A stretch of DNA of 64,000 nucleotides from Caldisphaera lagunensis DSM 15908 (lineage in GTDB: Archaea; Thermoproteota; Thermoprotei_A; Sulfolobales; Acidilobaceae): assembly GCF_000317795.1 (NCBI RefSeq), contig NC_019791.1:496001-560000 (forward strand), read 5' to 3'. The position numbers and the translations under genes are program-made. Positions within the stretch are counted from its first letter, which is position 1. The number at the start of each line of letters is the position of its first letter. Below the pieces are notes generated by a model. It saw nothing but the letters and a program-made list of their open reading frames with translations. It made no database searches and was not told the DNA's origin. Positions 60,909 to 63,664 of this stretch are shown here, in pieces.

Positions 60909-62288
60909 TTAGAAATAGGGTCTCATGGCATAGTTTATTGATTCAAAAGTTAATGGATGTGGCCCACAAACCCATGCGAGGTTCTTAGCTGTTAATCCAT
61001 TTTCTAAAGCAACAGCAAAAGCTCCCATTAGTTCTGCAGCATCATGAGCATATACTTGAACTCCTAAAATTCTTAGTGTTTCTTTTTCTAGGAATATTTT
61101 CATCCATCCTTCCCTATGATTAGTTATTTGGGATTGTGCATCACCTGCTAATTTGTAATCAACCACATCATAAGCGATCCCTAAACTCTTTAGTTCTTCT
61201 TCAGTATAGCCTATCATACCTATTTCTGGGTATGTAAAGACTGTAAATGGAACAGAGTGATAATTCATCCTATAGGCATCTCTTCCTATCAATATGTTTT
61301 TAGCTGCTATAATACTTTCTTTAACTGCTGCATGGAATAGCATTGCTTTTCCAGTAACATCTCCTGTTGCGAAAACATTTGGAAGAGTAGTCCTTAATGA
61401 TGGAGAAACCCATATTGCGTTTTTCTCTACTTTTAACCCCTCTTTTTCTAAGTTTTCCAATCCATATCCTTTAATTCTAGGCCTTCTTCCCACTGCCATC
61501 AAAACTTCCTCTGCTTCTACCTCAATAGTTCCATTTTTACTATTTGCTTTAACTACTTTCATCTCTCCTTTCTTTTCTATGGAAGCAACGGGACTATTCA
61601 AATACAGGCTTACTTTTGCCTCTTTCATTCTTGACTCAGCTGCTTTAGATAAATCGATAGGCATTGTTGGTAAGAGTCTGTCCATCATTTCTATTATAGA
61701 TACTTCAACCCCTAATCTTGAAAGCATATCTGCAACTTCAACCCCTATATAGCCTCCTCCAATAATAGCAATTGATTTTGGCAGTTTTTTCATTGTTTTT
61801 TGATATGCAAACAATTCATCACTTGTTAATACTAAATCTTTCCCCTGTATGTTTAAAATTACGTGTTCAGCACCAGTTCCTATAACCATATATTTTCCAT
61901 AGGCCTCAAAGTTTTCTTCTCCTTCGACTTTAACCTTATTTGGTGATAATATTGTTGCCCATCCTTTTATAAATGTTAAATTTGGCTCATGTTCCCTTAT
62001 TTCTTCCATATGTTGTTGGTATCTTATTTCTTGAACCCATTCTTTTGTTTTAACAACCTCATCCCAAATTTTTTCAGGATCTATTTCTTTATTTGTTGAA
62101 GTGAATTCCAATATCTTTGTTCTAACAGTTTTTGATGGTATGCAACCTGCATATAAACAATCGCCGCCTAGGTTTCCCTTATTATCTATCATTAAAACTT
62201 TTTTCCCTGCTTTGGCTAATTCAAAGGCTCCAGGATATGAAGCTCCTCCGCCTCCTATGAATATTACATCAAATTCGTTTTGATTCAT
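60909..62288 (-). CDS. Dihydrolipoamide dehydrogenase / mercuric reductase-like flavoprotein
   Basis: 459 aa. FAD-binding IFIGGGGASYPGAFELAKAG, redox disulfide C44/C49 in GGDCLYAGCIPSK, NAD-binding SIAIIGGGYIGVEVADML, NVFATGDVTG, and the C-terminal catalytic HPLTFE (His-Glu pair). No lipoyl complex genes are adjacent and pyruvate is handled by Por, so the electron partner is uncertain. GGTGA precedes the ATG. Confidence 0.88.
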   Translation of the reverse strand: MNQNEFDVIFIGGGGASYPGAFELAKAGKKVLMIDNKGNLGGDCLYAGCIPSKTVRTKILEFTSTNKEIDPEKIWDEVVKTKEWVQEIRYQQHMEEIREHEPNLTFIKGWATILSPNKVKVEGEENFEAYGKYMVIGTGAEHVILNIQGKDLVLTSDELFAYQKTMKKLPKSIAIIGGGYIGVEVADMLSRLGVEVSIIEMMDRLLPTMPIDLSKAAESRMKEAKVSLYLNSPVASIEKKGEMKVVKANSKNGTIEVEAEEVLMAVGRRPRIKGYGLENLEKEGLKVEKNAIWVSPSLRTTLPNVFATGDVTGKAMLFHAAVKESIIAAKNILIGRDAYRMNYHSVPFTVFTYPEIGMIGYTEEELKSLGIAYDVVDYKLAGDAQSQITNHREGWMKIFLEKETLRILGVQVYAHDAAELMGAFAVALENGLTAKNLAWVCGPHPLTFESINYAMRPYF

Positions 62289-62389: not shown

Positions 62390-62445
62390 TGCTCAGAGGA
62401 AAGTCGCTCATCACTGATCAGGGTCGCTCCATCCTCCTCACTGCT
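62390..62445 (-). ncRNA. Box C/D guide sRNA
   Basis: G+C-rich island in AT-rich DNA. Reading on the minus strand: C box GTGAGGA (62441-62435), guide GGATGGAGCGACC, D' box CTGA (62421-62418), 3-nt spacer TCA, C' box GTGATGA (62414-62408, perfect), guide GCGACTTTCCT, D box CTGA (62396-62393). Spacing is textbook for archaeal 2'-O-methylation guides bound by L7Ae, Nop5 and fibrillarin. The only deviation is one base in the C box. Predicted methylated bases are G in GGTCG and A in AGGAA of the targets. A TTAAAAAGG element lies about 35 nt upstream. Confidence 0.85.
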
Positions 62446-62770: not shown

Positions 62771-63664
62771 ATGAAAAATATAGTTATTTCAGGAACTAAT
62801 ATGGTTTCAGAAGAAATAGCAAAATCATTAGCAAACTCTTTATCTGCAGAATTGTGTAAGCCAATTTATAAAGTATTTCCAGATGGAGAAAGTTATGTAA
62901 GGTTACCATGCAATGTTAAGGATAGTAAAGCGATTGTTGTTCAATCTCTTATAAATCCTCAAGACAAATCCATAATAGAGGCAATATTGTTAGGAGATGC
63001 TATTAAAGAATCGGGAGCTAAAGATCAAATATTAATAACACCATACTTAGCTTATTCAAGGCAAGATAAGGTATTCTTGGAAGGAGAACCTATAAGCATA
63101 AGGGGAATTTTGAAGATATTTAGCGATTACTATAATATTTTAGCAACAATAGAAATACACAAAGAAGATAGCTTAAAATTTTTCAATAAAAAAGCAATTA
63201 ATATAAGGCCATATACATACATGGCTGAGAAAATTGGTTTTGATAGTAAAAATATAGCTGTATTGTCTCCTGATATAGGTGCAATAGATAGAGCAAAAAT
63301 TCTCTCCAGTTATTTGAATTGTGAATATGATTACTTTATCAAAGCTAGGGATAGAATTACAGGAGAAATTACTATGCAAACAAAAGAATTAGATGTTAAA
63401 GGAAAGGATATAATAGTGGTTGATGATATAATTAGCACAGGAGGTACTATATTAAAGGCAACACAAATTTTGAAAAATCAAGGGGCAAGAAATATTTATG
63501 TAATGGTATCACATGCATTATTATTAGAAAATGCTGAAGAAAAACTGTTTTCTAATGGAGTTAATAAAATATATGCAGCAAATACGTTACCAAAGAAGAG
63601 CAAAGTAGATTATATAGATGTGGGTCCACTAATAGCTAAGAATTTATCCGCTTATCTCGATTAA
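62771..63664 (+). CDS. prs: Ribose-phosphate pyrophosphokinase (PRPP synthetase)
   Basis: 297 aa, typical archaeal length. Motifs: KVFPDGESYVRLP, ITPYLAYSRQDKVFLEGEPI, LSPDIGAIDRAK, and the PRPP loop IVVDDIISTGGTI. It makes PRPP for purine, pyrimidine and His synthesis and for the phosphoribosyltransferase encoded next to it. GGGGACC precedes the ATG. The 3' end overlaps the convergent PRTase gene by 21 nt. Confidence 0.96.
   Translation: MKNIVISGTNMVSEEIAKSLANSLSAELCKPIYKVFPDGESYVRLPCNVKDSKAIVVQSLINPQDKSIIEAILLGDAIKESGAKDQILITPYLAYSRQDKVFLEGEPISIRGILKIFSDYYNILATIEIHKEDSLKFFNKKAINIRPYTYMAEKIGFDSKNIAVLSPDIGAIDRAKILSSYLNCEYDYFIKARDRITGEITMQTKELDVKGKDIIVVDDIISTGGTILKATQILKNQGARNIYVMVSHALLLENAEEKLFSNGVNKIYAANTLPKKSKVDYIDVGPLIAKNLSAYLD

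What the first reader, a model, noticed from the sequence alone, without database searches (positions are those of the whole stretch)
62390..62445. Box C/D sRNA whose two guides share the core GAGCGAC
Clear C, D', C' and D boxes with canonical spacing. Guide 1 ends in GAGCGACC and guide 2 begins with (T)GAGCGACTT, so both contain GAGCGAC. This could mean two related target sites or a duplication within the RNA. It was found in a gap upstream of the dihydrolipoamide-dehydrogenase-like gene on the same strand.
Basis: partly seen in the sequence, partly recalled or inferred. Interest (0 to 1): 0.58.

Follow-up and report, generated by a model that had tools for sequence, protein, structure and literature searches.

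The report
Guide RNA for ribosome decoding site
A 55-base archaeal guide RNA, conserved across a family of archaea, carries one guide that fits one strand of the ribosome's decoding helix and probably marks it with a methyl group, while its second guide seems to hold the opposite strand of the same helix; it is a new member of a known RNA class with an unusual pairing of guides.

Summary
A box C/D sRNA lies on the minus strand at 62391-62445, the only match to a C/D architecture in the window (60 shuffles: 0 strict, 0.017 loose per shuffle). The D' guide pairs 12 bp without mismatch with the genome's own 16S rRNA; the D'-5 rule points to G1408 (E. coli numbering) in decoding-site helix 44. Homologues occur in 34 of 48 family genomes, all 34 with the core TGGAGCGAC. 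The D guide keeps CGAC and UCC but varies at D-5, the position that would set methylation. Its best rRNA site, averaged over 29 homologues, is the opposite strand of helix 44 (1488-1497). I read it as an RNA that methylates G1408 on one strand and clamps the other without methylating it. The 'shared core' arises because both strands of this helix contain GUCG; two of its seven bases are merely the end of box C'. Methylation at 1408 was already predicted in two archaea (Dennis 2015), and Rfam sR2 relatives carry the same guide. New here: the half-swapped arrangement and the cross-strand partner guide. No expression or methylation was measured.

The parts
62391..62445 (-). box C/D sRNA, 55 nt, as matched by the covariance model
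   Evidence: (G000:C1:558391-558445)
62435..62441 (-). box C, GTGAGGA
62422..62434 (-). D' guide GGATGGAGCGACC; pairs with 16S local 1374-1385 (E. coli 1405-1416), D'-5 position G1408
   Evidence: TGGAGCGAC in 34 of 34 homologues
62418..62421 (-). box D', CTGA
62397..62407 (-). D guide GCGACTTTCCT; best mean rRNA site is the 3' strand of helix 44 (E. coli 1488-1497)
62393..62396 (-). box D, CTGA
60909..62288 (-). dihydrolipoyl dehydrogenase gene downstream on the same strand; found beside the sRNA in 7 of the 29 homologous loci examined
62771..63664 (+). ribose-phosphate diphosphokinase gene, divergent neighbour

Best explanation
It is an archaeal box C/D sRNA that works on the decoding site of 16S rRNA. 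Its D' guide pairs with the 5' strand of helix 44 and directs fibrillarin to put a 2'-O-methyl on G1408 (pairing shown; methylation inferred from the D-5 rule). Its D guide pairs with the 3' strand of the same helix through two constant blocks, CGAC with G1494-G1497 and UCC with G1488-A1490, leaving a small internal loop at G1491-A1493; because the D-5 position is not conserved, this arm is inferred to anchor rather than to methylate. The RNP would then hold both strands of the decoding helix during assembly and release them after G1408 is methylated. Shown: RNA architecture, D' complementarity, conservation, the D-guide conservation pattern. Inferred: expression, methylation, simultaneous binding, chaperone role.
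For: Perfect 12-mer to 16S, its only place in 16S+23S, expected 2.7e-4 by chance. D'-5 falls on G1408 by alignment to E. coli 16S. TGGAGCGAC in 34 of 34 homologues from 11 genera. The guide follows the target at 1414: guide GGAT with 16S CATCC in this genome; guide GGTG with 16S CACC in 7 of 8 other family genomes whose 16S reaches this site, the eighth (G024) having an apparently collapsed helix 44. The guide plus D box (TGGAGCGACNCTGA) is in 31 of 31 f11 genomes; the reversed control pattern gave 9 matches in 229 genomes against 75. D guide: D-10 to D-7 and D-2 constant in 30 of 30, D-3 in 29, D-4 in 28, while D-5 is T15/A9/C6. The helix 44 3' strand is the best mean site over 16S+23S for 29 guides (19 distinct); that energy at that site was reached by 0 of 150 and 1 of 2000 column permutations. 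It is among the top four 16S sites in 9 of 9 species tested. The site (GGGAGAAGTCGT) is identical in 22 of 22 16S sequences.
Against: The D-guide pairing is weak (about -10 to -15 kcal/mol), needs a bulge or internal loop, and as an energy is not unusual: 58 of 150 column permutations had an equally good site somewhere in the rRNA. Val-tRNA gives an equal mean energy (-12.62 against -12.66). Five family members were left out of the energy test: four in genus g8 have no D guide of the same shape, and G006 has CGAC but not UCC. 14 of 48 family genomes lack a detectable homologue, including all listed members of genera g4 (three) and g12 (four). No expression or modification data.
Confidence: 0.6

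Rival explanations
1. Single-target guide: the D' guide methylates G1408 and the D guide has no RNA target; its conserved blocks serve RNP structure or simply drift slowly.
For: One-third of archaeal C/D sRNAs had no significant guide match to 16S or 23S rRNA in Dennis 2015 (163/489). D-guide pairing to helix 44 is weak and needs a bulge.
Against: Seven D-guide positions are constant or nearly so across the homologues while D-5, D-6, D-1 and D-11 vary; an idle guide should drift evenly. The best mean rRNA site is exactly opposite the D' target.
Confidence: 0.22
2. The D guide targets Val-tRNA at the anticodon-stem/variable-loop junction (GGAGGUCGC) in its three isoacceptors.
For: Mean duplex energy -12.62, equal to helix 44.
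Against: 12 of 2000 permutations reach it against 1 of 2000 for helix 44. In the one relative where a Val-tRNA was at hand (G070, which has the sRNA) the tRNA reads GGAGGUCCGG, breaking the CGAC pairing. In the ungapped register the invariant D-2 C faces a C.
Confidence: 0.08
3. The D guide is a conventional guide that methylates A1492 (helix 44) or A864 of 16S in the ungapped register.
For: Both sites pair with one mismatch plus G-U pairs in this genome, near the relaxed rule used for double guides.
Against: D-5 is T in only 15 of 30 homologues, so half could not form the required pair with A.
Confidence: 0.08
4. Chance C/D-like sequence, not expressed.
For: No transcript data; Rfam does not call it at gathering thresholds.
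Against: Conservation in 34 genomes with a perfect rRNA match.
Confidence: 0.02

Closest known systems
Rfam sR2 (RF01139), C/D sRNA
   Same: In family f11 the RNAs that carry the same G1408-directed guide TGGAGCGAC before a D box match this family: 11 of 11 f11 loci scanned, 7 of 11 above the gathering score.
   Different: There the guide sits before box D; here it sits before box D'. The partner guide is unrelated. The window RNA itself was not matched by RF01139 even at E 10.
Predicted 16S A/G1395 (E. coli 1408) guides in S. acidocaldarius and N. equitans, Dennis et al. 2015 (PMC4644070)
   Same: Same predicted methylation site (passages and section 7 read).
   Different: The passages read report no cross-strand helix 44 partner guide; Table 3 of that paper lists helix-spanning sRNAs but none for this site.
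N. equitans sR15 and sR17, sRNAs proposed as 16S folding chaperones (PMC4644070)
   Same: Two guides on opposite strands of one 16S helix (helices 30 and 28).
   Different: Both guides are there predicted to methylate; here the second is inferred not to, and the helix is the decoding site.

Membership tests
Archaeal box C/D sRNA | Boxes C, D', C', D in order with about 11-13 nt guides and a short D'-C' linker | tested here: met
Archaeal box C/D sRNA | A guide complementary to rRNA over at least nine consecutive Watson-Crick pairs including D-5 | tested here: met
   D' guide, 12 bp on 16S; criterion from PMC4644070
Archaeal double-guide C/D sRNA | The second guide also meets that criterion | tested here: not met
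   D guide has no such site in 16S or 23S
Archaeal box C/D sRNA | Conservation of guide with its target across species | tested here: met
Archaeal box C/D sRNA | Expressed and bound by L7Ae, Nop5 and fibrillarin | not testable with these tools
   no RNA-seq or pull-down data at hand
Rfam RF01139 sR2 | Covariance-model score at or above the gathering score | tested here: not met
   not among matches up to E 10 for L034
Helix-spanning chaperone sRNA (Dennis 2015) | Two guides on opposite strands of one rRNA helix | tested here: inconclusive
   D' strand clear; D strand weak but best-placed

The most novel reading that the evidence does not exclude
A family-wide C/D sRNA whose second guide has been kept by selection as a non-methylating clamp: it grips the 3' strand of the decoding helix on both sides of A1492/A1493 with a loop at the methylation position, so that one RNP holds both strands of the decoding site, methylates only G1408, and so times the folding of helix 44.
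Probability: 0.4. Interest if true: 0.65.

Novelty: new member of a known kind. Interest (0 to 1): 0.4.

Why it matters
Nucleotide 1408 lies at the heart of the decoding site, and its identity and modification govern aminoglycoside binding (general knowledge, recalled). A methyl group placed there by a guide RNA across several families of this order would be a fixed feature of their decoding centre. A guide conserved nearly everywhere except at its methylation position is a clean, testable case for the proposal that C/D sRNAs act as rRNA folding chaperones and not only as methylation guides.

Tried and rejected
Internal duplication of the two guides: rejected, because the shared 7-mer includes box C' bases and only CGAC persists in the family. 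RNase P RNA as D-guide target (an AGGAAAGUC-like element, recalled from bacterial RNase P RNA, suggested it): the genome's RNase P RNA has no good site. Exact D-guide complement elsewhere: AGGAAAGTCG occurs only in the sRNA gene itself; the G-U-tolerant pattern RGGRRRGTYG gave 32 places (31 besides the sRNA) against 53 for the reversed control, so no excess, and I did not follow them singly. 23S rRNA: no site better than helix 44 in the family mean, although three 23S sites beat it slightly for this genome's own guide alone (-13.8, -13.6, -13.5 against -13.4). 16S A864 and A1492 in the ungapped register: half the homologues lack the needed base. SRP RNA and 5S rRNA were not searched. My first target scan used the rRNA loci in the wrong orientation and its result is void; one search replaces it. 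In one search, three hits (L177, L178, L186) lack a box C before the guide and look like chance, as do second hits in G041, G203 and G207. A Verrucomicrobium hit was taken for chance and not examined. The 16S-like stretch of G001 (L090) reads GTCGCGCC and looks foreign; it was left out of the covariation count.

Full report
What is there. The minus strand of 62391-62445 reads AGCAGTGAGGAGGATGGAGCGACCCTGATCAGTGATGAGCGACTTTCCTCTGAGC: box C GTGAGGA, a 13-nt D' guide, D' CTGA, a 3-nt linker, C' GTGATGA, an 11-nt D guide and D CTGA. This is the only match to such an architecture on either strand of the window; 60 dinucleotide shuffles gave 0 strict and 0.017 loose matches each. It stands 102 nt upstream of a dihydrolipoyl dehydrogenase gene on the same strand and is divergent from a ribose-phosphate diphosphokinase gene. 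The genome is a single contig of 1,546,846 bases. A same-genus genome (G001) has a contig of the same length (24,517 bases) as a record titled Caldisphaera sp., so the window belongs to Caldisphaera or a near relative; from memory the size fits C. lagunensis, which no call tested.

First guide. The D' guide pairs with the genome's own 16S rRNA over 12 consecutive Watson-Crick pairs, local 1374-1385, E. coli 1405-1416. That 12-mer occurs once in 16S plus 23S against 2.7e-4 expected. The nucleotide opposite D'-5 is local G1377, E. coli 1408 (A in E. coli), in the decoding-site part of helix 44. The D'-1 base is unpaired here and varies among homologues.

Conservation. BLAST over 60 genomes (relatives and this one) found strong homologues in 8 including this one (E 1e-5 or better). 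A covariance model from ten sequences was run over 214 genomes of the order; 34 of the 48 genomes of the family (f1) carry a homologue and all 34 contain TGGAGCGAC. The 14 without include three of genus g4 and four of g12. G002 and G027 gave only weak hits to a different C/D sRNA. This genome's 16S has CATCC where 7 of 8 other family 16S sequences that reach the site have CACC, and its guide has the matching A; the eighth, G024, has an apparently collapsed helix 44. The dehydrogenase gene lies beside the sRNA in 7 of 29 loci tested, all in two genera.

Wider distribution. The guide followed by a D box (TGGAGCGACNCTGA) is present in 72 of 229 genomes of the class: 31 of 31 in f11, 8 of 8 in f8, 13 of 20 in f7, 18 of 48 in f1 (others in f1 have a variant D' box), and single hits in f9 and f6. 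Three of these (one each in f8, f9 and f6) lack a box C and look like chance. The reversed control pattern gave 9 matches in all, against 75. In f11 the guide is the D guide, the RNA matches Rfam sR2 (11 of 11 loci scanned, 7 above gathering), and the D' guide is unrelated. In three f7 genomes tested the partner guide pairs strongly (about -20 kcal/mol) with a 16S stretch some 30 nt upstream of the G1408 site. So the G1408 guide is widespread in the order, while its partner guide differs between families.

Second guide. The D guide of this genome has no perfect target: AGGAAAGTCG occurs only in the sRNA gene itself. Among 30 homologues with an alignable D guide, CGAC (D-10 to D-7) is constant and UCC (D-4 to D-2) nearly so, while D-5 is T in 15, A in 9 and C in 6. 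A target that is methylated through D-5 should hold that base. Averaged over 29 guides (19 distinct; five divergent f1 members left out), the best site in this genome's 16S plus 23S is the 3' strand of helix 44, with no window better. There CGAC meets G1494-G1497 and UCC meets G1488-A1490, with a small loop at 1491-1493 (structures). Permuting guide columns reached this energy at this site in 0 of 150 and 1 of 2000 trials. Against this, 58 of 150 permutations found an equally good site somewhere in the rRNA, and for this genome's own guide alone three 23S sites are slightly stronger. It is therefore the location, exactly opposite the first guide's target, that carries the argument and not the energy. 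The site is within the top four of its 16S in 9 of 9 species (rank 1 in three).

The rival Val-tRNA. The same guides pair equally well on average with Val-tRNA of this genome (-12.62 against -12.66). It is less specific under permutation (12 of 2000), and in G070, the only relative whose Val-tRNA lay in a fetched locus, the tRNA has lost the GUCG. One relative is thin evidence, and the rival is not excluded.

The shared core. Helix 44 has GUCG on both strands around the decoding site: 1405-1408 and 1494-1497. Two guides, one for each strand, therefore both contain CGAC.

Comparison with the literature. Dennis et al. 2015 (PMC4644070; outline, sections 7 and 16, and search passages read) predicted methylation at A/G1395, E. 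coli 1408, in S. acidocaldarius and N. equitans, called predictions in helix 44 sparse, and proposed chaperone sRNAs whose guides span a helix. The review PMC7994747 (outline, section 4 first part, section 8) describes the class. Of PMC7089733 I saw two passages. Paper searches listed nothing whose title was about this RNA in Caldisphaera or Acidilobus, or about a cross-strand helix 44 guide pair; the library holds only open-licence papers and I read only those named, so this does not show that nothing is in print.

Verdict. It is a genuine member of a known class. Its first target is well supported and was predicted before in other archaea. The half-swapped layout relative to sR2 and the conserved, probably non-methylating cross-strand guide are the new parts, the latter at moderate confidence.

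Noticed in passing
L206, L207, L214, L216, L217, L220, L221: A second conserved C/D sRNA family (D' guide with GTGTGGTGGAC or a close variant, D guide with AGGAGCCCT or a close variant) turned up as weak model hits in several families; its guides match the window genome's rRNA over at most 8 nt (23S), so its target is unknown.
   Followed up: partly
L088 (G024 16S): Helix 44 appears collapsed: the 16S runs from the 5' strand straight into GAGGGGGGAGAAGTCG, as if deleted between repeats; its same-genus relative G016 is normal. Assembly artefact or real loss not decided.
   Followed up: no
L048, L054 and other g7/g14 members: The D'-C' linker of these homologues is much longer than the 3 nt here and could form a small stem.
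   Followed up: no
L249, L254, L256 (f7): The partner guide (GTAGTAGGGACGTA and variants) pairs with 16S some 30 nt upstream of the G1408 site, giving a conventional double guide in that family.
   Followed up: partly
L225-L248 (f11): The sR2-type gene ends just upstream of, or overlaps, the start of a small open frame that begins like acylphosphatase (judged by eye only).
   Followed up: no
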